Assembly: GCF_001305595.1 (NCBI RefSeq)
Contig: NZ_CP012401.1
Location: forward strand, 2,057,001-2,121,000
Source of the DNA: Azospirillum thiophilum
GTDB taxonomy: Bacteria; Pseudomonadota; Alphaproteobacteria; Azospirillales; Azospirillaceae
Length of the DNA stretch: 64,000 bases
Direction of reading: 5' to 3'
Shown here: in pieces, positions 1 through 11,317 of the stretch
Layout: each line of letters starts with the position of its first letter
Numbering within the stretch: position 1 is the first letter of the stretch
Translations under genes and position numbers: made by a program
Notes under the pieces: generated by a model
What the model was told of the DNA's origin: nothing
What the model saw: the letters and a program-made list of their open reading frames with translations, nothing else
Database searches by the model: none

Positions 1-366
1 CTGGACGGTGTCCTGGCGGGGTTCGATGGCTATGCCGCGAACGTTCATGCGCTGGTGTCGCCGACAGCGAAGGTCGGGATCGATGATCTGCTGCTGAGCC
101 GCTATCCCGAACGCACCTTGCTTTGGGCTGTTGCCCTGACCATGCGGGACCGCTTGGCGGAGTCCATCACCGAATACCTTGCGAACAAGCCGGCCGGTTT
201 GCCGCACGCCGCACGCGAAGCCAAGCTGGCAACGCTGGAGGCGTCTCTGCTGAAACTCGAGCGCGACGAAGAGAAGCTGATCGAGCATGCCGGCGCCGCC
301 GGGATCGAGATCATGCGCCGAGTAGATGCGGATCCCCGTGCCGTTCTCGACATTATCGAAAGCTGA
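1..366 (+). CDS. C-terminal part of a hypothetical (prophage-region) protein, open at the window edge
   Basis: The frame is open from base 1 and ends at a TGA at 364-366, so the true start lies outside the window. About 121 residues are visible. The last 60 are rich in Ala, Glu, Lys and Leu and look like an amphipathic helix or coiled coil. I recognise no family. The stop lies 8 bases before the ATG of the next gene, a relative of a phage head-assembly protein, so a phage structural role is plausible but unproven. Confidence 0.55.
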   Translation: MDGVLAGFDGYAANVHALVSPTAKVGIDDLLLSRYPERTLLWAVALTMRDRLAESITEYLANKPAGLPHAAREAKLATLEASLLKLERDEEKLIEHAGAAGIEIMRRVDADPRAVLDIIES

Positions 367-374
367 GGCTTGCC

Positions 375-896
375 ATGTTCCGACACATGCTTGCGCATTT
401 GAACCCTTTTGCCTTTTGCGGGGCTGGCACCAAGGAGGCTCCCAAACGGACGCTGAGCCCGCCCGGCAGACCTGCCGGGCGGTTCAGCTTTGCTGATGTT
501 CTCCAACGCTCCACGGGGCGCACAAGCGGCGGGAACAGTAGTGCGGCCTATGGCGGCACCCGAGTAGGATCATCGGGCGGAGACAAGGCCGAGAGGGACC
601 GCTGGCGGACCGTGTTCGCGTCACCAGAAGCACAGGATCGACCTGAAGCGGCCTGCACCATGCTCGCTACAACGAACATGCCGCCGGCCAAGATCATCGC
701 GGCGTTGGTGGGGATACCGAAGCCGATACGGGGCAATCCGGAAATGATCGCCGCGATGGATGCTTTCCATATCCCCAAGATCGGCGCTGCCTACGAGGGG
801 CCGGTTCTGTCGGAAGATCAGCAGGCAGCCCATGCCGTGCTTGCCAGCCTGAACCAGACTCTCCATCCGCTCAACCGCCTGGACAGGAAGGCATGA
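375..896 (+). CDS. Phage head-assembly/scaffold-like protein, relative of the gene at 13988-14503
   Basis: The frame gives 173 residues from an ATG at 375. It shares a layout with the protein encoded right after the S49 protease at 13988: an N-terminal AHLNPF motif near residues 7-12, a low-complexity linker, a block of the form R-x-R-x3-(I/V)FA-x-P, then N-P-x3-AAMDA-x2-IP and a final AxAVLASL. The shared blocks point to a common ancestor, probably a capsid assembly or scaffold component. The usual neighbours (protease upstream, decoration protein downstream) are absent, so this is a remnant of a second related prophage. Function is inferred from the relative's position in a lambda-type head cluster. 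Confidence 0.6.
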   Translation: MFRHMLAHLNPFAFCGAGTKEAPKRTLSPPGRPAGRFSFADVLQRSTGRTSGGNSSAAYGGTRVGSSGGDKAERDRWRTVFASPEAQDRPEAACTMLATTNMPPAKIIAALVGIPKPIRGNPEMIAAMDAFHIPKIGAAYEGPVLSEDQQAAHAVLASLNQTLHPLNRLDRKA

Positions 897-953
897 TCAG
901 GCGCGGGAAGTCGATAGCTGTGCGGGCTTCCTGATTTCCTCCGCTGGGTATGG

Positions 954-994
954 AAGGATCCGTCGACGGCAATTCAGACGGTCGACGGATCCTT
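954..994. repeat. Perfect 14-bp inverted repeat with 13-nt spacer
   Basis: AAGGATCCGTCGAC at 954-967 is matched exactly by its reverse complement at 981-994. No T-tract follows, so it is not a typical terminator. It lies between two phage gene remnants and may mark a recombination scar or a protein-binding site. Confidence 0.75.
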
Positions 995-1025
995 AATCAG
1001 GGGCGGGCCGCGCCGGGACAAACGG

Positions 1026-1427
1026 ATGGAGCGCCAGCTGCGGGCCGCTGGCCTGCTGTCGGCCAGGATGTTCGCCCTTCCGAGCGAAGAGGCCAGCCTC
1101 GACGCCTACGGCAACATGCGTCGGCCGGAGGTGGTCCGCATCCTGGTCGCCGACCTATGCTTTCGGGTAGCAGCGATGCAACGCCAATCGGAGCAACAAC
1201 GCCCACAGCAGGAAGCAGCATTGCCCGGCAATGCTTGCGGGCTGTCGCCGGGCATCTACCAGCGCGACGGCACCGACGCCCGGCCAGTGGTGACCTTCGT
1301 TCGGGCGCCAAGTACCGCCCGCCTCCGCTTCCACGACATCGAGGAGCGGGCGGGTCGCGCCAACATCGGACGGCGCCTCGAGGAGGCGGTGCGGCCGGTC
1401 AACGCCCGCTTCGCCGCCCGACGGTAA
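1026..1427 (+). CDS. Phage structural protein fragment (neck/minor-tail type)
   Basis: The frame gives 133 residues. It contains L-D-A-Y-G-N-M-R-R-P followed by a helix, then PGIYQRDG and a run of the form PVVTFVRAPS-x-x-x-RLRF. From memory this is the arrangement of the C-terminal half of a phage structural family with a YGN(M/I)-R-x4-(I/V)L block and a PG(I/V)(Y/W)-R-x-G core. The N-terminal half is missing, there is no good ribosome-binding site before the ATG at 1026, and the frame stays open upstream to a stop near 990. It is therefore probably a truncated gene beside the inverted repeat at 954-994. The precise role is not known. Confidence 0.45.
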   Translation: MERQLRAAGLLSARMFALPSEEASLDAYGNMRRPEVVRILVADLCFRVAAMQRQSEQQRPQQEAALPGNACGLSPGIYQRDGTDARPVVTFVRAPSTARLRFHDIEERAGRANIGRRLEEAVRPVNARFAARR

Positions 1428-1571
1428 GCGCCTAGCTGGCCGCCGCGGGTCCTTCCGGGGGCACCCCCCAGAGAGGGTAATTCGGGCCGCACCCCCACAC
1501 CCTCTAAGAAAATTTCCAGACGCGCTTTTTGTTTACTTCCGAAGCAGGTTGAGGGGGATTAGGAGCGGGAC

Positions 1572-2251
1572 TCATAACGGGTAGGCGAAGATTGCCGCGA
1601 ATTGGACAGCTGCCATGAAATTGGTCGCGGATCAGTCATGCCGGGTGGCGATGCGCCAGAAGTCTTTGAGGCTTCCGAGCATGCGCTCGATCACGTTACG
1701 GTTGCGGTGGAGGTAAGGGGAAAAGCAGTTTTTCAGCACGTGTTGATGCGTGGTGGGATGCTGAGCGCGGCTCCCGCCTCCTCGATCTTCCGGTAAGCAG
1801 CGGCACTATCGTAGCCTTTGTCGCCGTGTAGAAGATCGGTGGCGAGCATCCGGTCGAGCAGGTGGTCAGTGGCGGTGCAGTTGGCCATCTGACCTCCAGT
1901 CAGCAGGAAAGCGAGTGGCGAACCGTGCGGTTCGCTCGGGGCGTGGATTTTTGTGGTCCGCCCGCCACGGGATCGTCAGATGGCCTGTGCTCGTTTCCCC
2001 CTCTGCCGCCGCTTACCGAACAATGGTCGCACACCACTGTGGAGTCGGTCATCCCCTGGACTGGCGGGCCACCCGCTGCCGCCAAAGGATGGAAGATGTT
2101 TTTCCAAACGCCTTTGGCCGCCCAGCGGACAAAGCGGATGTAGAGCGTCTCACGGCGATGATCCAAGCGCGGCTTGCCGCGGGTGTTGCTCGGAAGGTGC
2201 GGCTCCAGCCCCCAAACTGCTCCACCATCAGCCAAAATGACCGTCGCTCAT
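1572..2251 (-). pseudogene. Decayed IS5-family transposase (IS427-like) with frameshifts, stops and an internal deletion
   Basis: On the minus strand the pieces of an IS5-family transposase appear in order but in shifting frames. They are GLEPHLPSNTRGKPR near the start, then RFVRWAAKGVW, GPPVQGMTDST, AFLLTGGQMANCTATD, LLHGDKGYDSAA, and finally NVIERMLGSLKDFWRIATRHD followed by an in-frame TGA before SATNFMAAV. At least three frame changes and two stops are needed to join them. The segment between the first block and RFVRW is shorter than in the family, which indicates an internal deletion. I could not recognise the element's terminal repeats. It cannot make a transposase. Confidence 0.85.
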
Positions 2252-2368
2252 CACAAAGCCTCTTTCAAGGGTGTTGAATCGCGACGGTTCTATCCAGAAA
2301 GTTTCTTTATGGGTTTTAACCTAAAGTGGTAATGTTCTTCGTGATCGTGGCCGATATGACGTGGATGT

Positions 2369-3406
2369 TTACCATATGTAAGGGGTGGATGACTTAGTAA
2401 CGTAAGCGGAATTGCCAACTAGAGCCTTTGCTTTCTCATATGAGGAATTCTGATTTGGCCCAGGACCAACAATTATCTTATTAATTGGCAATTTCTTTTT
2501 CCCGCTGTGAGAAAATAATGACGCGTATGATACCTCTTTTTCTGAACGAGTTCTGGTTCTTATCTGGTGAAGGTCATGCTTCGGAGGAAAGTGTTTGCTT
2601 ATATTATACTTATCTGAGCTTTCTTTTGTCATTGGACATGCTACAATTCTGACCTCCCTTTCTTCGTAAAAGCCTCTATGTTTAAATCTCGTAGCTCTCG
2701 ACATGAAGTCCATGTATATGGATGTCTTCCATTCTTTCTGATCTTTGATTGCTATATCCCAAACGCGGCAGAACTCATCAATCAAAGGAGCGCATTCTGA
2801 AATTACTGTATCTGACCCATAATTATATATTACGTCATCGATGAAAAGAGCCCAGTAAGTGTTTGAAGAAAATGACTGGAAAACTAGATCGCATATAATC
2901 TTGGTATCGAATACAATTGCAAAACTTTCCATTCCTCCATATGCTCGCCACTGGCTAAGTAGGCCATTTTCCTTTTCATAACTATCATCTCTGCTATGAG
3001 AGCAGAATGATGTGATAAATGGGATTGAAGTATTATTATTAGTATCTCTGTTCTCGACCGTTGCACCATAGATAGCGCTCACAAGGCATTCAGCTTCATT
3101 CTTTGCACTATTCCAGTTTCCGCCAGACTTCTGTACAAGCGTTCTTTCCTTAAAGCCTTTTTTGCCAAAATCTTTCATTTTATCCACCATTTTGGGGATT
3201 AATGCTTTAACGAGGGGATCTTTTAAGTGACTTATCTCTGTATAATCATTCAGGCAGTCATAGCGTGTTGCCCACAAAGTACCGGAACTCCAGATGCCTT
3301 TGAGGCCTTCCCAAGTTGTGTAGTGAAATAACTCTCTGTGCCTTTTGTGTAATGGTCCGTGCTTTGGAATGTAATTATAAATAGAAATCTTGCCGGTTTC
3401 TTCCAT
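2369..3406 (-). CDS. DUF2971-family protein in an AT-rich prophage accessory module
   Basis: The protein has 345 residues from the ATG at 3406, chosen because AGGAG lies 6 bases upstream; an ATG at 3421 has no such site. DUF2971 signatures are visible: FHYTTWEGLKGIWSSGTLWAT (H28-Y29-T30), CLND-x2-E at 51-57, SFCSHSRDD near 133-141, LLSQWRAYG at 149-157 and EREVRIV at 249-255. The family has no settled biochemical role. Its H-Y-T ... W-R-x-Y-G ... E layout recalls ADP-ribosyltransferase-like folds such as DarT, but that is only an inference. The stop of the upstream gene is 18 bases away, and both follow a regulator on the same strand. Base composition is far more AT-rich than the neighbours, pointing to recent transfer. 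Confidence 0.8.
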   Translation of the reverse strand: MEETGKISIYNYIPKHGPLHKRHRELFHYTTWEGLKGIWSSGTLWATRYDCLNDYTEISHLKDPLVKALIPKMVDKMKDFGKKGFKERTLVQKSGGNWNSAKNEAECLVSAIYGATVENRDTNNNTSIPFITSFCSHSRDDSYEKENGLLSQWRAYGGMESFAIVFDTKIICDLVFQSFSSNTYWALFIDDVIYNYGSDTVISECAPLIDEFCRVWDIAIKDQKEWKTSIYMDFMSRATRFKHRGFYEEREVRIVACPMTKESSDKYNISKHFPPKHDLHQIRTRTRSEKEVSYASLFSHSGKKKLPINKIIVGPGPNQNSSYEKAKALVGNSAYVTKSSTPYIW

Positions 3407-3424
3407 TTTGTTCTCCTGCATGGT

Positions 3425-4027
3425 TTATTCTTTTAAGGGAAGTCCATATTCTTCGTGAAGGCGGAAAGATAGTGCTGTGCACTCTTCATTATTCCCATTT
3501 GCTGCTAACAGCATTGCGCGAAGAAACGCCAACATTGCTTCACGGGGAGCGTTCTGAGCCCATTGTGACAATAGCTTTGCACCGTGAGGGTCGCTAAATG
3601 CCTCCCAAATGTCGGCCTCGAATGCTTCTGGCTTCTTCATTGCAAACCAGTTCAGGAAAACTCTTCTGGTCAGAGATGTTGTTTGTTGTATCTCTGCTAA
3701 GTTCATGGTGGCCATAAATATCATAAGGTCATTTTTTTCCGTATTGAAGAATATTACTTCATTAGGATCTCTGTCTGCGTGCTTAAAAAAGTTGGCAGGT
3801 GCTGCTAGTCCTCTAAGAAAACCCTTTAAAGCACTATCCTTTAAATGAATTATAAAAGCATCTCCTATAGAAAATACCTTGCCATGTTTGCATAAATCTT
3901 CTGCTACTTCGTAGGCCGCAGCAGAGAGTGTATGAACAGAAACAGGAAATTTGTTTTCAGCAAGAAGATTGATGGCAGCGTCAATTTGCTCAGACGCGGC
4001 ATGAATTTTAGAGACAGTCATTTCCAC
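3425..4027 (-). CDS. Hypothetical protein, helical, partner of the DUF2971 gene
   Basis: The protein has 200 residues from a GTG at 4027; an ATG at 4021 is an alternative. A purine-rich AGGGGCG stretch lies 8 bases before the GTG. Visible features are an N-terminal helical region with FPVSVHTLSAAAYEVAEDL near residues 28-46, then FLRGLAAPANFFKHADRDP near 74-92 and a helical C-terminus. The H-T-L-x-A-A-A-Y and N-x2-KHADRDP motifs belong, as I recall, to a family of uncharacterised proteobacterial proteins. A HEPN-type RNase motif (R-x4-6-H) is not convincingly present. It sits between a CI/Cro-like regulator and the DUF2971 gene on the same strand, so the three probably form one transcript. 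Confidence 0.7.
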   Translation of the reverse strand: MEMTVSKIHAASEQIDAAINLLAENKFPVSVHTLSAAAYEVAEDLCKHGKVFSIGDAFIIHLKDSALKGFLRGLAAPANFFKHADRDPNEVIFFNTEKNDLMIFMATMNLAEIQQTTSLTRRVFLNWFAMKKPEAFEADIWEAFSDPHGAKLLSQWAQNAPREAMLAFLRAMLLAANGNNEECTALSFRLHEEYGLPLKE

Positions 4028-4039
4028 AATATTTCGCCC

Positions 4040-4279
4040 CTAAGATTTATGGAATTTATCCTTCGTCAGACGAACGCCAGGACCCTCACCATTCTCATCA
4101 ATAAATATGATGCCAGCCTCCTCAAGAGTCTTTCTCATTGTGGAAATTGTGACCTCTTTTAGTGCCTCTCCACGCTTAAAGCGACCAATGGTATCTAATG
4201 AAACCTTTGATGCCGCAGATAAATTTCGAGTTCCCCAACCAAGGGCAGCAAGGGCCATCTCAAGTTGGATGGGAAGCAT
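4040..4279 (-). CDS. XRE/CI-like prophage transcriptional regulator
   Basis: The protein has 79 residues from the ATG at 4279 (MLPIQLEMALAALGWG). Longer starts upstream would run through the operator palindrome, so this one is preferred. A lambda-repressor-like helix-turn-helix is visible at residues 5-60: LEMALAALGWGTRNLSAAS, KVSLDTIGRFKRGEA, and TISTMRKTLEEAGIIFI. The last block (TLEEAGIIFIDENGEGPGVRL) is the usual C-terminus of short XRE regulators in phages and mobile elements. It has no peptidase domain, so it is not a LexA-type CI. It diverges from the replication-type gene at 4426 across a spacer full of dyads, the classic immunity-region layout. It probably controls its own operon (3425-4027, 2369-3406) and the early region. 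Confidence 0.8.
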   Translation of the reverse strand: MLPIQLEMALAALGWGTRNLSAASKVSLDTIGRFKRGEALKEVTISTMRKTLEEAGIIFIDENGEGPGVRLTKDKFHKS

Positions 4280-4336
4280 TCGGATCACCGATACGATTTT
4301 GGTTGATGGGTCCAGAGATGAAGAATATCGTATCAA

Positions 4337-4354
4337 TGATCCGATATCGGATCA
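4337..4354. promoter_or_regulatory. Perfect 18-bp palindrome, candidate repressor operator
   Basis: TGATCCGATATCGGATCA is its own reverse complement. It lies in the 146-base spacer between the leftward regulator (start 4279) and the rightward early gene (start 4426). A second dyad, GATACGAT at 4290-4297 with ATCGTATC at 4327-4334, flanks it. Both are plausible sites for the XRE regulator. Confidence 0.6.
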
Positions 4355-4359
4355 AGCGC

Positions 4360-4393
4360 TCGGGTCGAGTGGAGTAGCAGCCACTCGACCCGA
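4360..4393. repeat. Perfect 13-bp inverted repeat with 8-nt loop in the immunity spacer
   Basis: TCGGGTCGAGTGG at 4360-4372 pairs exactly with 4381-4393. It lies 32 bases before the ATG at 4426, so it could be an operator or could form a hairpin in the leader of the early transcript. No T-tract follows. Confidence 0.65.
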
Positions 4394-4425
4394 TCTAACC
4401 ACACACCGAACTGGAGCTTCGGATC

Positions 4426-4983
4426 ATGGCTGATTCCGAGAATACCATACCTTTGCCTAAAACCAGCGGCTTCCCGCCGCCAGTCCCGCCGTCGCTGGAC
4501 CTTCGTCGTCTCTGGTGGATGAAACTCGATGTCACCGCCTTGCTGAATAGCACGTTCAACATGACGGCCGATGATACGGGGTGGCGCTGCGGTATCACCC
4601 TCTACATGAAGGCATGGCATCAGGTGCCCGCCTCAAGCCTTCCCGATGATGATGCCATGCTGTGCCATATGGCCGGCTTGGGGCGTGATCTGGAAACATG
4701 GCGTCGCGTTAAAGGGACCGCTCTGCACGGCTTTACCAAGTGCAGCGATGGCCGCTTGTATCACCCCTTCCTAGCCGCGCAGGCCCTTGAAGCCTGGGGT
4801 GAGTTCGAGCGGATGAACGCCCGCCGAACCAAGGATCGTGAGCGCAAGCGTACTCGCGGAAATGTCGAAGAGGCGTCCGAAGGAATTCCAGCGGAAAAAT
4901 CGCTACAGGACAGGACAGAACAGTCTCCCCCCTTCGTCCCCCCAGACGGCGCCGCCGGATTTGACCCCGCTGGCTCGGCTTTA
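4426..4983 (+). pseudogene. 5' part of a DUF1376 phage replication-type gene, interrupted by the IS1595 element
   Basis: This piece encodes 186 native residues from an ATG preceded by GGAG. A DUF1376 (YdaU-like) domain covers roughly residues 26-130: LWWMKLDVTALLNSTFNM, WRCGITLYMKAWHQVPASSLPDDD and a W-x2-V-K-x4-GF block. A charged linker follows, with several Arg/Lys near residues 130-145. Such proteins sit in phage early regions and are thought to act in replication initiation. The gene is split by an insertion whose left end begins at 4984. Its reading frame resumes exactly at 6653 once the element and one target duplication are removed, giving a 270-residue protein. Confidence 0.85.
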
Positions 4984-5100
4984 CGGACTTATGTAGCATC
5001 CGCCACTATGACCGGCGGGTGAGCACAAATCATGAACTTGATGATTCACAACGGAGTCGTGGCCGGGTAGACTCGGGCAATCACCGTGTCGGAGATCGCC

Positions 5101-6099
5101 ATGCCCCGTCGCACCAAAAGCCAGCACTTCCTTCTCAGCGCCGCGGCGCGCACGCTGTCGCTGGCGACCGTGCTGCGCCTGTCGGACACGGAAGCCGAGA
5201 CGGTGTTCGCGGCGATCCGCTGGCCGGAGACGAACGGGCGTCCCGTGTGCCCGGCGTGCGATTGTGATGCGGTGTACGACTGCCGCCGGCCGAGCGGTGC
5301 GCCTCGCTGGCGCTGCAAGCGGTGCCGCAAAGACTTCTCCCTCACCTCGGGCACGCTGTTCGCCTTCCACAAGCTGGCGCTCCGGATGTACCTCGCCGCC
5401 GTGGTGATCTTCGTCAACGAGGTGAAGGGCAAGGGCGCGCTGCCGCTGTCGCGCGACCTGGGCGTCCAGTACAAGACGGCGTTCGTGCTGGGCCACAAGA
5501 TCCGCGAAGCGATGGCGGCCGAGAGCCGCGGTGTCGTCATCGGCGGCGCGGGCAAGGCGGCGGAGATCGATGGGGCCTACTTCGGCGGCCACGTCCGCCC
5601 GGAGAACCGCAAGGCGGAGCGCAAGGACCGCCGGCTGGCCATCAACCAGACCGGCAAGCGCCGGTGTGTCGTCACCATCCGCGAGCGCGACGGCCGCACC
5701 CTGACCGGCGTGTTCCCGTCCGAGGACGCCGCCGGCAGCTTCATCCGCTCGCGCGTCGCCAAGGGCACCGAAGTGCATGCGGACGAGTCCAGCGCCTGGA
5801 ACGACCTGCACGCCCGCTACCCGATGCACCGCATCAACCACCAGGACGCCTACAGCCAGGACGGCGCCTGCACCAACGGGGCGGAATCTTTCTTCTCGCG
5901 CATCCGCCGCGGGGAGATCGGGCACCATCATCACATCTCGGGCCTCTACCTGCACCGCTACGCCAATGAGGCCGCGTTCCGAGAGGATCATCGCCGGACC
6001 AGCAACGGCGAGCAGTTCCGCGTCGTGGTCGGGCTGGTGACGAAGACCGGCCCGTCGGTCGATTTCTGCGGCTACTGGCAGCGCGCTCACGCGGCGTGA
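5101..6099 (+). CDS. IS1595-family transposase (ISXO2-like DDE domain)
   Basis: The protein has 332 residues from the ATG at 5101, with GGAG 6 bases before it; a GTG at 5086 is an alternative. The N-terminal zinc ribbon has C50-x2-C53 and C72-x2-C75. The catalytic triad fits D157 (EIDGAYFGG), D228 (HADESSAW) and E262 (NGAESFFSRIRR). The IS1595-type TNGAESFFS-x-IRR-x-EIG and YLHRYANEAAFRED blocks are present. It cuts and joins the element's ends. The frame is intact, so the copy may be active. Its 3' end overlaps the passenger gene by 13 bases, tail to tail. Confidence 0.93.
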   Translation: MPRRTKSQHFLLSAAARTLSLATVLRLSDTEAETVFAAIRWPETNGRPVCPACDCDAVYDCRRPSGAPRWRCKRCRKDFSLTSGTLFAFHKLALRMYLAAVVIFVNEVKGKGALPLSRDLGVQYKTAFVLGHKIREAMAAESRGVVIGGAGKAAEIDGAYFGGHVRPENRKAERKDRRLAINQTGKRRCVVTIRERDGRTLTGVFPSEDAAGSFIRSRVAKGTEVHADESSAWNDLHARYPMHRINHQDAYSQDGACTNGAESFFSRIRRGEIGHHHHISGLYLHRYANEAAFREDHRRTSNGEQFRVVVGLVTKTGPSVDFCGYWQRAHAA

Positions 6100-6548
6100 T
6101 CGGCGGGTTCGGCCGGAAGGCGCCAGCGGGCGCCCAGGCCATTGCCGATCTTCTCCACCGTGCCCTTGCCTTTCAGGGCGGTCAGGGTGTTGAGGACGCG
6201 CTGGATGAAGTCGGAGCGGGTCTTGCGGTCTTCCGGATCGAGCCCTTTGTCGCGCAGCGCGGCGACGGCGATCTCCTCAGCGGCAACGACACGTCCCTCT
6301 GCCATGCGCAGCGCCTCCAGGCAGCGGCGCGCCAGCTCGCCGCTGGCGAAGTAGTGGGAGCGCCTCGCCGGCGGCTTCTTCGGCGCGATGCTCTCCGGCT
6401 CCAGTTCCGGGGCGAACAGGCGCAAGGTGGCGTCCAGGTGCACCAGGTCGGCCCGGTGCTGAGACATCCGCTTCTCAAGCTCAAGGATTGCCCCGGAGAT
6501 CTCGCCCCGCTTCTCCCGCAAGGCGCTGACAACGTGCGGCTCGCCCAT
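6087..6548 (-). CDS. Passenger protein of the IS1595 element, function unknown
   Basis: The protein has 153 residues and is encoded inside the element, convergent with the transposase. Residues 8-45 form a probable coiled coil (LREKRGEISGAILELEKRMSQHR). A second part contains HYFASGELARRCLEALR near 65-81 and a winged-helix-like tail, TRSDFIQRVLNTLTALKGKGTVEKIG near 111-136. This could be a DNA-binding accessory or regulator of transposition. No enzyme motif is visible. Its position between the transposase and the right terminal repeat shows that it travels with the element. Confidence 0.75.
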   Translation of the reverse strand: MGEPHVVSALREKRGEISGAILELEKRMSQHRADLVHLDATLRLFAPELEPESIAPKKPPARRSHYFASGELARRCLEALRMAEGRVVAAEEIAVAALRDKGLDPEDRKTRSDFIQRVLNTLTALKGKGTVEKIGNGLGARWRLPAEPADHAA

Positions 6549-6652
6549 ACTCCATGCCCCTTCTGTGCGGCTTCAGGGCGACAGGGTAGCTGGCAGGGCG
6601 GCGACGCGGCAGGATCAGGCGGTGGCGGGTGCTACATAAGTCTGCGGCTTTG

Positions 6653-6907
6653 CTGGGTAGCGACAGGAACGCCGTGGAGTGTCGGCCACGATCCAGCAAG
6701 GGCGGACGGAAAGAGCGCCTGCGTTCCGCTCCTGAAAGGGTGTCGGATGCGAATGCGCAATGGCGCTGCCGCTTGGCTGTAGGGCCGGAAAAGCCTTGGC
6801 TTTCGTCTTGGGGACCGCAGCCGGGCGAACCTGGATGTGATGCGCCCGCCGCCTTGGTCGCGGCCAGCCCTTGGGGTCAGCGTTTATCCGCAACTCCTGC
6901 CGAGTGA
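6653..6907 (+). pseudogene. 3' part of the DUF1376 gene interrupted by the IS1595 element
   Basis: Removing 4984-6644 and one target duplication joins codon 186 of the 5' piece in frame to this segment, adding 84 residues and a TGA. The tail has W-R-C-R-L ... W-L-S-S-W-G-P-Q-P-G-E-P-G-C, which matches the C-terminal W-x2-R ... W-G-P-x-P-x2-P-G-C pattern I associate with phage replication-type proteins. The stop lies 7 bases before the next start (6915), consistent with one early operon before the insertion. Confidence 0.8.
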
Positions 6908-6914
6908 GCCTGAC

Positions 6915-7016
6915 ATGAGCAAAGCCAATCTGGTGCTGGGCTGCGAAGGTGAATTCCAGCCCTCGTATGAGGCGCTTGTCACGGTCAGCGATACTCAGGA
7001 GGTGGCCCATGGGTGA
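6915..7016 (+). CDS. Small phage protein, 33 residues
   Basis: This short frame starts MSKANLVLGCEGEFQPSYEA and lies 7 bases after the end of the DUF1376 gene. It overlaps the next gene by 8 bases (ATGGGTGA), the usual sign of translational coupling. No family is recognised. It was chosen over noncoding because of the tight packing on both sides and because its frame closes exactly inside the next start. Confidence 0.5.
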   Translation: MSKANLVLGCEGEFQPSYEALVTVSDTQEVAHG

Positions 7017-8034
7017 CGCTGCCCTGTCGATCACTCCAGCGCGGCCGGCGCCGACGCGGCGCGCTGTGCTTGCCGGGGGTGTAGCGTTTACGGCCGTTCC
7101 CGACGCCAAGATCATGCCGCCGATCGGCATGGTGAAGGGCGCTCCGGTGCGGGATCCCGTGGTCGATCTCTGGTCCCGCTACATGGCGTTGGAAGCCGAC
7201 GTCGAGGCGGCTTGGACCCTTGTTGAGGCAGCAAAAGCGCGGCTGCCCGCATGGGCGCAGGAGGCGGGGTGGCCGGTCTGGACCGATGCCATGATCGCGG
7301 AGCACCGTCTGCCGGAAGCATGGACGCAGCCCGGCTTGGCCGAACTGGTGAGGCTTCACCGGGAGCGGCTGTGGCATTGTCCAATCGGAGACAATGCAGC
7401 CCGCATGCAGTGTGTGGTGGAGCATCGGGCGCGTGCCCGCGCCTGGATTGCCCGCGTGCGTGAACAGCGACAACTCCGAAACGTTGCCGGCATTCCCGAG
7501 CTGGTGGCGCAGGCAGATGCACTGTGGGATCGCCGTAGCGCCATCGAAGCGGAGATCCTGCGCACTCGTCCCCTGACCATGCCCGGTGTGGTGTGCAGCA
7601 AGCTTCTGGTCTGGCGGGACAACCTCGATGGCCTGGACGAGGATGGGGCCGGCTTCACCGACGACATTGTCCTGTCGGTTCTGTCCGACCTTCAAGCCGG
7701 AGTCGCCACTGGTGCATCTTCTCTGCCGCTGAACGCCGCCGGGGACGATGTCCGCTTTCTCGCATGGGAAGCCGAGTTGGCAGAGTTGTTGGGCCGGCGC
7801 TTCGAGGTGGACGAACCGTCAACGCATCACAGACGGGTCGACGCGCTGGAGCGGTTGATCGCCTGGACGCCAGCATCGGGGCATGTGGGCGCCTTGGTAA
7901 AGCTGCGGCGGCTGGTCTGCCCGCAGCTGGGTCTGTTCGCCTGCGGGCACCGGACGGACGGAGACACCGAGGCGATGATCCGCGACGTAATGCGGGTGAT
8001 TGCCGCGCATGTCGCGGATGGCTCCGATGGATGA
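7009..8034 (+). CDS. Hypothetical phage early-region protein
   Basis: The protein has 341 residues from the ATG at 7009, preceded by AGGAGG about 7 bases upstream. Residues 15-30 (PTRRAVLAGGVAFTAV) resemble a Tat or membrane leader, but the rest looks soluble and helical, rich in Trp, Arg and Ala. Repeated W-x-R and R-x2-R-x-R-x-W patterns lie around residues 120-165. I recognise no enzyme motif. It overlaps the genes on both sides (8 bases each), so it belongs to the early operon that ends with the integrase. Its GC-rich composition differs from the AT-rich modules at 2369-4030 and in the integrase gene. Confidence 0.65.
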   Translation: MGDAALSITPARPAPTRRAVLAGGVAFTAVPDAKIMPPIGMVKGAPVRDPVVDLWSRYMALEADVEAAWTLVEAAKARLPAWAQEAGWPVWTDAMIAEHRLPEAWTQPGLAELVRLHRERLWHCPIGDNAARMQCVVEHRARARAWIARVREQRQLRNVAGIPELVAQADALWDRRSAIEAEILRTRPLTMPGVVCSKLLVWRDNLDGLDEDGAGFTDDIVLSVLSDLQAGVATGASSLPLNAAGDDVRFLAWEAELAELLGRRFEVDEPSTHHRRVDALERLIAWTPASGHVGALVKLRRLVCPQLGLFACGHRTDGDTEAMIRDVMRVIAAHVADGSDG

Positions 8035-8227
8035 GCGCCGTTCCGCCCTACTGGAAAAAGCCGTCGGGCTTCTTGCGGCAGTGTTTCGCACCATGGACCC
8101 GAAGGAAAGGGACAGCCTTCTGGAGCTAATGGATCAAGCAGGTAATGCGTCCGGGCCTGACAAGGGGCGCTTAATGAAATTGATCCACGAGCGCCTCAAG
8201 AGCCACAACGATAGTAATTGCTCGTAA
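8027..8227 (+). CDS. Small hypothetical phage protein
   Basis: The protein has 66 residues from the ATG at 8027, overlapping the previous stop (8032-8034) by 8 bases. It is mostly helical and charged (ERRSALLEKAVGLLAAVFRTM, then KERDSLLELM and KGRLMKLIHERLK). No family is recognised. The overlap implies translational coupling to the 341-residue protein. It is the last small gene before the integrase. Confidence 0.55.
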   Translation: MDERRSALLEKAVGLLAAVFRTMDPKERDSLLELMDQAGNASGPDKGRLMKLIHERLKSHNDSNCS

Positions 8228-8313
8228 ACAAATCCTGTCATAGATACAGCGCTATCGCCCACTCTTGTGGGTGGGGCGGTGGCGCTTCTATGCAGAGGCA
8301 TGGAGAAGTTCAC

Positions 8314-9549
8314 ATGGCATCTGTACGGAAACGTGAGTGGCAATACAACGGCGAAGTAAAAACCGCTTGGGTTGTAAACTATACAGATCAGTCTGGGAAG
8401 CGCCGGTTGAAGACCTTCGACCGGAAAAAAGAGGCGGATGCATATCGGCTAAAGGTCGAAACGGAAATAGAAAAAGGTGAGCACACGGCAGATGGATCAT
8501 CCGCAACTGTCGCCCAAGTCTGCGATCAATTCTTAAAAAGCGCAGAGGAACGCTATAAGGCCGGCTCTATTGGGACGTCGACATTTTACAAGTATAGGCT
8601 GGCTGTCGATAGATACATTATTCCCGCAATTGGAAGTCGTAGATTTAACTCTCTGTCATGGTCTGATCTCGAAACTCTTCAAAGGGGGTTTTCTAAAGTT
8701 TCTCCTACGACAGCAAATGGATATCTTACCACCCTGAAAATGATTGAGGATTATGCAATCCGGAGAGGTTACACTAAGAAGAGAATAGTAAGAGATTATC
8801 GGTTGGATTTCGCATCTTCAAAAAAGAAGAAAATTCGGATACCGGCCATCGAAGATATACTTTCTATACTGAAAATTGTTGATGAAAGGCCGAGAAACTA
8901 TGTTATTCGTGGTCATATGCTTCTCAGGTGCTTTGTCCATCTGGCCGCCTTCTGTGGGCTGCGGTATGGTGAGATTGCTGGGCTGACCAAGGATAATATT
9001 GACCTAGACAATAAAATGATAATGGTCCGCCATTCTCTTACAAGCTGGGATGAATTGAAGCAGCCAAAGACGGAGGCAGGCGTTAGGAACGTTCCAATAC
9101 CGGCCCATATCGTCGCTCTATTGAAAGAGTGGATCGAGAAGCACCAATTGATCAATGATAGAGATCTTGTGTTCCGTACGAGCACTGGATACCCTATAAA
9201 TTCTGGAAATTTCCATACGCACTTTTGGCATCCTCTGTTAAAACGGGCAGGACTGTATTCAACCGATGGGGATCAACTCCATTTTCATGCGCTTCGTCAC
9301 TTTACGGTGTCGTTCATGCTCAACCAGGGCATTCCGGTAACGGAAGTGTCTCGACATGTCGGGCACAGTCGTTCGGACATCACCTTGAACACCTACGCTC
9401 ATGCGTTGGCAAATGACGGGCAGAGGCAGGAAGCGATGGATCGCATTGCAGATGTGTTGTTGGATCGAGCGCGCGCCGCTCCCCAACCGACCTCAACGGA
9501 GCGCATCGGCGAACGTAATCGCAAGGATCAGGCGCGACCTGCGGAATAG
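8314..9549 (+). CDS. int: Tyrosine recombinase (phage integrase)
   Basis: The protein has 411 residues from an ATG at 8314, the first with a sensible N-terminus (MASVRKREWQ). It has an N-terminal arm-binding beta region (WVVNYTDQSGKRRLKTF), a core-binding SAM-like domain at about residues 62-160, and a catalytic domain from about 175. The active-site set fits R217 (CGLRYGE), K252 (PKTEAG), H325-x2-R328 (HALRH), H351 (GHS) and nucleophile Y361 (NTYAH). It should catalyse integration into and excision from attB. The gene is more AT-rich than the structural genes that follow. The natural target is probably the tRNA-Pro scar at 31199-31243, but that pairing is inferred. Confidence 0.93.
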   Translation: MASVRKREWQYNGEVKTAWVVNYTDQSGKRRLKTFDRKKEADAYRLKVETEIEKGEHTADGSSATVAQVCDQFLKSAEERYKAGSIGTSTFYKYRLAVDRYIIPAIGSRRFNSLSWSDLETLQRGFSKVSPTTANGYLTTLKMIEDYAIRRGYTKKRIVRDYRLDFASSKKKKIRIPAIEDILSILKIVDERPRNYVIRGHMLLRCFVHLAAFCGLRYGEIAGLTKDNIDLDNKMIMVRHSLTSWDELKQPKTEAGVRNVPIPAHIVALLKEWIEKHQLINDRDLVFRTSTGYPINSGNFHTHFWHPLLKRAGLYSTDGDQLHFHALRHFTVSFMLNQGIPVTEVSRHVGHSRSDITLNTYAHALANDGQRQEAMDRIADVLLDRARAAPQPTSTERIGERNRKDQARPAE

Positions 9550-9601
9550 CACGGATGGTTCCGGCCGCGACAAGAGCGCGACATAGATCATTAAAGCATT
9601 G

Positions 9602-9618
9602 ATATAGAATATCTATAT
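9602..9618. repeat. 17-bp AT-rich palindrome at the integrase/terminase junction
   Basis: ATATAGAATATCTATAT has 7-bp arms around ATA. It lies in the 70-base gap between the integrase stop and the point where terminase homology begins. It may be a promoter element, a recombinase site or the scar of the deletion that fused the modules. Confidence 0.6.
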
Positions 9619-9619
9619 T

Positions 9620-11317
9620 CCAGATGCGGAAGATTTCGGAAGCGGCGAGATCGCGCCGATGCTGCGCGACACCCCGGCGCTGAAGCCGCTGCTGCGGCCG
9701 GTGAGGAAGGGCGAGAAACAGGACAACGCCGCCTTCTACCAGCTGAGCAACGGCGCCAGCGTGCGGGTGGTCGGGGCCGCGTCGGACGACGCCTTCCGCC
9801 GCTACTCGGCCCGCTTCCTGTTCGCCGACGAGATCGACGGCGACGGCTGGACGCCCGGCGCCAGGACCCAGGGCGACAAGCTGAAGCTGTTCTGGACCCG
9901 CGGCGAAACCTTCTGGAACCGCTCGATGGTGCGCGGTTCCACCCCGCTGCTGTACGAGACGAGCCGGGTGTGGCGGCTGTGGCTGGCGTCGGACCAGCGC
10001 CGCTATTTCGTGCCCTGCCCGCAATGCTCGGAGGCCGCCGGCCGGCTCGACGGCTGGCAGCATCTGGATTGGGGCGGGCCGGACGTGCCGCACGGGCTGA
10101 AATGGAGCCTGGACGCCGAGGGCGCCCTGGACAAGGTGTGGTACGTCGGCACCTGCGGCTGTGTCATCGAGGAGCGGCACAAGGCGTGGATGGACGCCAA
10201 CGGCGAGTGGCGGCCGACCGCAAGGGCCAAGGTGCCTGGCCATGTCGGGATGCATCTGTGGACCGGCATGTCGCTCAACCCCAATGCGGCGTGGCCGGTG
10301 ATCGTCCAGGAATGGCTGGAGGCGCAGGCCGACCCGGCGACGCTGGTGCAGCCCTTCGTCAACCTGCGGCTCGGCCGGCCCTACCGGGCGACCTATGGGC
10401 AGGAGATCAAGAGCGCCAGCTTCATCGACCGCATGGAGCCGTACCCGGCAGAGGTGCCGGCGGGTGTCGAGTTCATCACGGTGGGGGTGGACGTCCAGTC
10501 CGGCAAGGTCAACCCGCGGCTTGAGGCATCGGCCTATGGCTGGGGCCGCGGGCTGGAGGTCTGGCTGATCGGGCATTTCATCCTGCCGGGCGATCCGGCC
10601 AAGGCCGAGGTGTGGGCGGCGCTGGACGAGGGGGTGCTGCTGCGGCGCTACCGCAAGCCGGACGGCAGCACGCTGGACGTGCGGGCGACCTGCATCGATT
10701 CGGGCGGCCACCACACCCAGGAGGTCTATGCCTTCGCCAACAAGCGCCGGGCGCGGCGGGTGTGGGCGATCAAGGGCCGCTCGGAAAGCCGGGGGCAGCG
10801 GGGCCGGGTGTGGCCGCGCAAGCCGTCGAGCAAGCTCGGCCATGTCTGGTACATGATCGGCGGCAACGCGGCGCGCGACTGGGCCTATGGCTCGCTGCCG
10901 GTGGACAGGCCGGGGCCGCGGCGGGTGCATTTCCCGCAAGCCGCCATCGACGGCGCCCGCGAGCTGGACGAGGAGTTCTTCGCCCAGCTGACCCGCGAGC
11001 GGCTGATCGTGCCGCGCGGCCAGCAATACACGGTGTGGCAGAAGCCGGCCGAGGCCCATGAGGCCGGGGTGTGCTTCGTCTACGCCTACGCCGCGGTGTG
11101 CGGCCTTCAGGCGCTGTCCGGCAAATACGTCAAGCTGGGCGAGGCCGATGCGGTGCCGGTGCCAGTGACCGACTCGGATGACACTGGCGCGGACTCGACA
11201 CCCGCCGACGCCATCGCCGCGGCGGTCGCCCGGGCGCGCAGGCTGAGCCAGCCGGCCGCGGCAGTCCAACCGGCGGCGCCGGCGGCCTCGACCGACAAGG
11301 GGGAACTGTACCTATGA
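9620..11317 (+). pseudogene. terL: Phage terminase large subunit, N-terminally truncated (GpA/TerL, lambda type)
   Basis: Homology starts at about 9620 with P-D-A-E-D-F in an open frame; the first in-frame ATG is at 9659, giving 552 residues. Visible family features are APMLRDTPAL, a Walker B-like FLFADEID (D57-E58 from that ATG), a zinc-type CPQC and CGC pair, and a nuclease domain with ITVGVDVQSGK and TCIDSGGHHTQEVY. Family members are about 100 residues longer and carry the Walker A ATP-binding loop in that missing part. The truncation coincides with the junction to the integrase module, so the packaging motor is probably inactive. The 3' end overlaps gpW by 4 bases. Confidence 0.88.

What the first reader, a model, noticed from the sequence alone, without database searches (positions are those of the whole stretch)
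2369..4279. AT-rich three-gene prophage module (XRE regulator, 200-aa protein, DUF2971 protein): candidate accessory or defence cassette
Three leftward genes share AT-rich composition unlike their surroundings and sit in the lysogeny position, diverging from the early region across an operator-like spacer. Two encode proteins of unknown function: a 200-aa helical protein with KHADRDP and a DUF2971 protein with H-Y-T, SQWRAYG and EREVR motifs. Genes transcribed with a prophage repressor are often superinfection-exclusion or anti-phage genes. The H-Y-T ... E pattern could reflect an ADP-ribosyltransferase-like fold, which would make this a toxin-based system. That function is inference; no homologue pair was searched.
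Basis: partly seen in the sequence, partly recalled or inferred. Interest (0 to 1): 0.75.

Follow-up and report, generated by a model that had tools for sequence, protein, structure and literature searches.

The report
Swappable cargo genes inside a phage-gene insertion
Two AT-rich genes of unknown function, one resembling DNA/protein ADP-ribosylating enzymes and one resembling RNA-cutting HEPN proteins, are exchangeable cargo behind the repressor of a mobile element that has inserted itself into the DNA-packaging gene of a resident bacterial virus; they are probably defence or competition genes, but this is untested.

Summary
The three leftward AT-rich genes are real and intact: XRE regulator 4040-4279 (45% GC), 200-aa helical protein 3425-4027 (42%), DUF2971 protein 2369-3421 (39%), tightly packed and divergent from a phage-type replication gene across an operator-like spacer. 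The whole region lies in a 16.0-kb insertion with two tyrosine integrases that splits the terminase large-subunit gene (terL) of a resident Azospirillum prophage; six congeners show the empty site. A second isolate has the same element at the same terL site, but with a different AT-rich two-gene cassette behind a 60%-identical XRE. XRE plus cargo is therefore an exchangeable cassette. DUF2971 resembles DarT (ART) profiles only over the N-terminal H-Y-T motif, well above shuffled controls; fold matches to DarT are the sensible ones but not significant. The 200-aa protein is a helical family with sub-threshold HEPN signals and a mostly lost catalytic Arg. The two genes are normally not partners: one adjacent pair in about 110 other loci. 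DUF2971 alone is recurrent cargo of P4/PICI-like satellites (integrase-AlpA-DUF2971). Best reading: exchangeable accessory, probably anti-phage, cargo; ART-based toxicity is a moderate inference. A new variant of a known kind.

The parts
2369..3421 (-). DUF2971 protein, 350 aa; N-terminal L-F-H-Y-T motif (residues 31-35), N58-D59..E62, SQWRAYG, K247..F251..E254-x-E256-x-R258
   Evidence: PF11185 E 2.2e-6 over the gathering score; phrog_1762 E 3e-9; invariant columns of a 60-row alignment all kept; AF2 pLDDT 82
3425..4027 (-). 200-aa all-helical protein of an unnamed family (motif N-F-F/L-K-H-A-D), GTG start; stop is 3 nt before the DUF2971 start
   Evidence: 80 loci in genome contigs, 22 in viral contigs; AF2 pLDDT 92, all helix; sub-threshold HEPN_Apea matches in 9 of 65 members
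4040..4279 (-). XRE-type regulator, 79 aa from ATG 4279
   Evidence: No Pfam hit by itself, but about 60% identical (44 of 73 columns) to the XRE at the same place in L254, which hits HTH_3
4280..4425 (.). Divergent operator-like spacer; 18-bp perfect palindrome TGATCCGATATCGGATCA at 4337-4354 and related arms 4280-4300 / 4324-4344
4426..4981 (+). DUF1376 / phage replication protein gene, truncated by an IS; its counterpart in L254 is not interrupted there
4982..6645 (+). IS1595-family insertion (transposase 5086-6099), absent from L254
   Evidence: DDE_Tnp_IS1595 E 3e-39
1538..4395 (.). Exchangeable cassette: cargo plus XRE, different in the second isolate; left edge sharp, right edge inside the divergent spacer
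6949..8034 (+). 361-aa protein of unknown function, element backbone
   Evidence: kept in L254 within a 91.9% identical DNA block; no family match
8218..9549 (+). Tyrosine integrase next to the right junction
   Evidence: Phage_integrase E 6e-27; 96% identical copy at the same terL junction in L254/G037
9623..9629 (.). Right junction core GATGCGG; left junction core at L223:13602-13608 (16.0 kb away)
9623..11317 (+). C-terminal part of the split terL of the resident prophage
   Evidence: phrog_15 positions 452-970; residues 138-690 of the intact TerL of L256

Best explanation
The module is the immunity-plus-cargo cassette of an integrative element (a small prophage or satellite-like element) that uses a tyrosine integrase to insert into terL of resident Azospirillum prophages. 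SHOWN: the insertion in terL, the same element at the same site in a second isolate, exchange of the whole XRE-plus-cargo block between isolates, and intact reading frames. INFERRED: the XRE binds the palindromic spacer, represses the DUF1376 operon and allows its own leftward operon to be transcribed in the dormant element, so the 200-aa and DUF2971 proteins are made in the lysogen. INFERRED: they are accessory fitness genes, most likely against competing phages. DUF2971 would act as an NAD+-dependent ART-like effector, and the 200-aa HEPN-like protein as an independent or loosely coupled second factor.
For: terL is split into residues 1-147 and 138-690 of the intact protein. The flanks are contiguous in six congeners, five with a full-length TerL frame. 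L254, which is G037 contig C763, has the same integrase (96%) and backbone at the same terL junction. The cargo in G037 is a different AT-rich pair with tight overlap, and the XREs are 60% identical. DUF2971 alone recurs as cargo of satellites, integrase-AlpA-DUF2971-...-DUF5906 primase, in 11-12 loci, and in 64 viral loci in all. ART link: hhalign probability 44-52%, score 34.1 against at most 17.5 in 100 shuffles; DarT and Tpt1 chains among the fold hits. HEPN link: 9 of 65 members match HEPN_Apea below threshold and AbiV is the most probable PDB match.
Against: No functional data. No PADLOC match. ART similarity covers only 28-31 columns; no fold match reaches E 0.001. The HEPN Arg is mostly absent (19 of 106 members have it) and is Ala in the window protein. 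The two genes are rarely neighbours. The DUF1376 gene is broken by an IS, so the element may be defective. That the XRE is a working repressor is not tested.
Confidence: 0.45

Rival explanations
1. The 200-aa protein and DUF2971 form a dedicated two-gene toxin-antitoxin or abortive-infection unit: DUF2971 is an ART-like toxin and the HEPN-like protein, with its catalytic Arg lost, holds it in check or senses the phage.
For: 3-nt spacing here and a 14-nt overlap in the only other pair, L050 in a Hydrogenedentota genome, same order and strand. With about 80 DUF2971 places per 398 genomes such adjacency is expected fewer than 0.001 times by chance (own estimate).
Against: About 110 other loci of the 200-aa family have no DUF2971 neighbour and 100 or so DUF2971 loci have no 200-aa neighbour. 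Both families evidently work alone. The two pairs are only 23-28% identical.
Confidence: 0.2
2. Lysogenic-conversion cargo with no anti-phage role, for example stress, regulation or superinfection immunity limited to the element's own kind.
For: Neighbours of the 200-aa family are very diverse, including housekeeping genes; no defence-library match.
Against: Some neighbours are defence-type genes (Vsr, AAA_15/AbiEii-like, Mrr, PIN); DUF2971 recurs in satellites, whose cargo is often anti-phage (own knowledge).
Confidence: 0.25
3. The genes are a decaying remnant in a patchwork of insertion sequences and phage fragments, without present function.
For: IS1595 interrupts the DUF1376 gene; IS-like remnant at about 1600-2280 (sequence reading only); two further transposases in the left half.
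Against: All three frames are intact, all invariant DUF2971 residues are kept, and both protein models are confident.
Confidence: 0.1
4. The module is the lysogeny region of the resident prophage itself.
For: XRE divergent from a phage replication gene with operator-like palindromes.
Against: The block sits between two halves of the resident prophage's terL, with an integrase at the junction and empty sites in congeners.
Confidence: 0.03

Closest known systems
DUF2971 (PF11185) / phrog_1762
   Same: Sequence match over the curated cut-off; all invariant residues present
   Different: Has an inserted, little conserved stretch (about residues 85-130); function of the family is unknown
DarT ADP-ribosyltransferases (PF14487, ART superfamily)
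   Same: Shared N-terminal hydrophobic-H-[YIF]-T ... L..I...G.L motif; DarT recurs in the fold search
   Different: No detectable similarity beyond about 30 residues; no DarG-like macrodomain or NADAR partner next to it; fold score not significant
HEPN superfamily (Apea-like HEPN PF18739; AbiV PF18728)
   Same: All-helical model; HEPN_Apea is the only Pfam family recurring in more than three members; AbiV is the most probable PDB match; R-N-F-F-K-H in some members fits the Rx4H pattern
   Different: All scores below thresholds; the Arg is present in only about 18% of members and is Ala here
Cargo slots of P4/PICI-like satellites and prophages
   Same: One or two variable, AT-rich accessory genes next to regulatory genes of an integrative element; DUF2971 itself is found as such cargo
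   Different: Here the slot is behind an XRE repressor and the element sits in terL of a prophage; of the element genes scanned none is AlpA or a DUF5906 primase

Membership tests
DUF2971 (PF11185) | Match over the Pfam gathering score | tested here: met
   29.3 bits against 22
DUF2971 (PF11185) | Invariant residues of the family | tested here: met
   Y34, N58, D59, E62, L155, S156, R159, Y161, Y199, K247, E254, E256, R258, P320 kept
DarT / ART superfamily | Profile match to the family | tested here: inconclusive
   No DarT match in the Pfam scan; hhalign probability 44-52% over 28-31 columns, clearly above shuffles
DarT / ART superfamily | ART fold (split beta-sheet of two three-stranded units) | tested here: inconclusive
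   Alpha/beta model, pLDDT 82; best sensible PDB hits DarT 7omv, 7yk3, 7omw but E 0.2-1, TM 0.2-0.37
DarT / ART superfamily | NAD+ consumption or ADP-ribosyl transfer | not testable with these tools
   needs biochemistry
DarTG system | Adjacent DarG macrodomain (or NADAR) antitoxin | tested here: not met
   Neighbours are the 200-aa helical protein and an IS-like remnant; no macrodomain match
HEPN | Rx4-6H motif | tested here: not met
   Window protein has A-N-F-F-K-H; R at that place in only 19 of 106 members
HEPN | HEPN helical-bundle fold or profile match | tested here: inconclusive
   HEPN_Apea in 9 of 65 members, best E 0.0054, below threshold; AbiV prob 0.47, TM 0.37-0.46
Known anti-phage defence system | PADLOC model match | tested here: not met
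   no match at E up to 1
P4/PICI-like satellite | Integrase with AlpA and DUF5906-type primase | tested here: inconclusive
   Integrase present; of the element genes scanned none is AlpA or a DUF5906 primase (a DUF1376 replication gene instead), but not every ORF of the 16 kb was scanned

The most novel reading that the evidence does not exclude
A mobile element that parasitises phages by integrating into the conserved terL motif of resident prophages, which disables their packaging until it excises, carries interchangeable two-gene defence cassettes behind its repressor; the one here pairs an ART-like NAD+-consuming effector (DUF2971) with a catalytically altered HEPN-like protein, a defence pair not yet described.
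Probability: 0.2. Interest if true: 0.75.

Novelty: new variant of a known kind. Interest (0 to 1): 0.5.

Why it matters
DUF2971 is common (69 of 398 sampled genomes of the phylum) and recurs in satellites and prophages, yet I found no known function for it. A testable ART link would place a large set of mobile-element genes among NAD+-dependent effectors. An element that targets terL would be a direct way for one mobile element to block the packaging of another.

Tried and rejected
(1) Stable pairing of the two genes: rejected; only L050 among about 110 other loci. (2) A conserved other partner of the 200-aa family: none found in its 80 genomic and 22 viral loci; neighbours are diverse. (3) A conserved antitoxin next to DUF2971 in viral loci: none; the recurrent neighbours are integrase, AlpA and replication genes of satellites. 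(4) Close DUF2971 relatives in viral contigs or sequenced phages: none. (5) Fold search of the 200-aa model in the viral library: nothing. (6) Sequence search of both profiles against PDB: only noise. (7) A first hhalign script control used a wrong (global) flag and was repeated in local mode. (8) The 30-42% relatives of the integrase do not abut terL in the loci checked, so terL targeting is shown only for the close pair. (9) Paper searches for DUF2971 function or for terL-inserted elements found nothing useful in the held library. (10) Rfam scan of window 1-10000: nothing.

Full report
OBSERVATION. The three leftward genes are present as described: DUF2971 2369-3421, a 200-aa protein 3425-4027, and an XRE regulator whose ATG is at 4279 (stop 4040). 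They are 3 and 12 nt apart. Their GC is 39.3, 42.0 and 45.1%, against 60-73% over most of the flanks. The divergent gene at 4426 is a DUF1376 / phage replication protein. The spacer has an 18-bp perfect palindrome, TGATCCGATATCGGATCA (4337-4354), and related half-sites, as expected for a repressor operator; binding is not shown.

CONTEXT, WHICH CHANGES THE READING. The window lies in a 7.6-Mb, 8-contig genome; its genus is taken as Azospirillum because a same-genus genome (G007) and a named A. brasilense plasmid carry the same integrase relative at nearly the same coordinates. The terminase large subunit of a resident prophage is split: its N-part is at L223:13215 onward (20 kb of DNA left of the window), its C-part at window 9623-11317. 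The two parts correspond to residues 1-147 and 138-690 of an intact TerL in a congener. In six congeners the two flanks are contiguous, five of them with a full-length TerL frame. The insertion is 16.0 kb, with the 7-bp core GATGCGG at both junctions (L223:13602-13608 and window 9623-9629). It has one tyrosine integrase near each end and several IS elements. The module is therefore in an element nested in a prophage gene and is not the resident prophage's own immunity region.

A SECOND OCCUPIED SITE. The viral contig L254 has the same length (10,159 bp) and content as contig C763 of the congener G037 and is counted as one isolate. It carries the same integrase (96%) at the same terL junction, and 8.5 kb at 91.9% identity. 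Its DUF1376 gene is uninterrupted at the place where the window has an IS1595 insertion. It keeps an XRE in the same place (60% identical), but the DNA behind it is different: contig L297, which continues the same backbone up to the base equivalent to window 1537, then carries an AT-rich leftward pair, a 208-aa HTH protein and a 279-aa protein that overlap. The HTH protein has a weak PADLOC candidate match, PDC-M64B E 5e-7. That L297 and L254 are adjacent in that genome is inferred from the shared backbone, since they are separate contigs. So the block from 1538 to about 4395 is an exchangeable cassette of repressor plus cargo.

THE DUF2971 PROTEIN. It passes the Pfam cut-off and keeps every family-invariant residue. 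The family is common: 69 of 398 genomes sampled from the phylum, and 64 viral-contig loci. In 11-12 loci it sits in P4/PICI-like satellites as integrase - AlpA - DUF2971 - ... - DUF5906 primase, so it is a recurrent single-gene cargo. For the ART idea I built a DarT alignment and compared profiles: probability 44-52%, P about 2e-4, over 28-31 columns that align L-F-H-Y-T...I...L with DarT's I-Y-H-I-T...I...L. The local score of 34.1 compares with a maximum of 17.5 in 100 column shuffles and 12.5 for the reversed alignment. AlphaFold gave pLDDT 82; in the PDB search DarT (7omv, 7yk3, 7omw, 7omx, 7omy) and one Tpt1 recur among the hits, none significant, next to long helical noise such as V-ATPase subunits. 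I read this as a probable but unproven ART relationship.

THE 200-AA PROTEIN. It belongs to a family with no name in Pfam, NCBIfam or PADLOC, found in 80 kept genomic loci from many phyla, 22 viral loci and 9 of 398 genomes of the phylum; it is absent from the 44 congeners searched. The model is all helix, pLDDT 92. HEPN_Apea is the one Pfam family that recurs below threshold (9 of 65 members), and AbiV, a HEPN RNase, is the most probable PDB match although not significant. N79, F80, K82, H83, A84 and D87 are invariant, but the Arg needed for the HEPN motif is present in 19 of 106 members and is Ala here. It is best called HEPN-like, catalytic activity doubtful.

DO THE TWO GENES BELONG TOGETHER? 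Only one other adjacent pair was found, L050 in a Hydrogenedentota genome, same order and strand, overlapping by 14 nt. That single case is unlikely by chance (my estimate, below 0.001, from the DUF2971 density), but all other loci of both families lack the partner. They are mix-and-match cargo with an occasional association, not an obligate system.

MECHANISM. Shown: insertion, exchange, gene integrity. From established knowledge of temperate phages: genes co-transcribed with a repressor are expressed in the lysogen, and a published screen found many anti-phage genes in prophages and satellites (PMC9519451). Inferred: DUF2971 as an NAD+-dependent effector and an anti-phage role. ARTs and NADases are used widely in such conflicts (PMC9503650); that paper's main text does not mention DUF2971.

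VERDICT. A real, intact, exchangeable accessory cassette.

Noticed in passing
L223:13602 to window 9623 (G000:C1:2050602-2066623): A 16.0-kb integrase-bearing element splits terL of a resident prophage; the same element is at the same terL site in one other isolate (L254 / G037), with empty sites in six congeners.
   Followed up: yes
L297:3701-5163: The equivalent slot in the other isolate holds a different AT-rich, overlapping pair: 208-aa HTH protein (weak PADLOC PDC-M64B match) and a 279-aa protein with no family.
   Followed up: partly
L008, L159-L169, L184, L189, L190: DUF2971 recurs directly behind AlpA in P4/PICI-like satellites (integrase - AlpA - DUF2971 - DUF5906 primase); possible satellite cargo hotspot.
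   Followed up: partly
window 4982-6645: IS1595-family insertion interrupts the DUF1376 replication gene of the element.
   Followed up: yes
window 1001-1545 and L223:12139-12722: A minor-tail-like segment inside the insertion is 78% identical to one just left of terL in the resident prophage (duplicated or homologous phage block).
   Followed up: no
L223 about 2100-6500: Long internal tandem repeats (1.1-kb units 96% identical and others) left of the resident prophage genes.
   Followed up: no
G000:C2:984072-984329: A second DUF2971 gene on another replicon of the same genome, a better Pfam match than the window copy.
   Followed up: no
L296:8025-8156: G037 contig C397 ends in DNA matching L223:13742-13874, just inside the left junction, but the rest of that contig does not match the resident prophage; left end of the G037 element unresolved.
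   Followed up: partly
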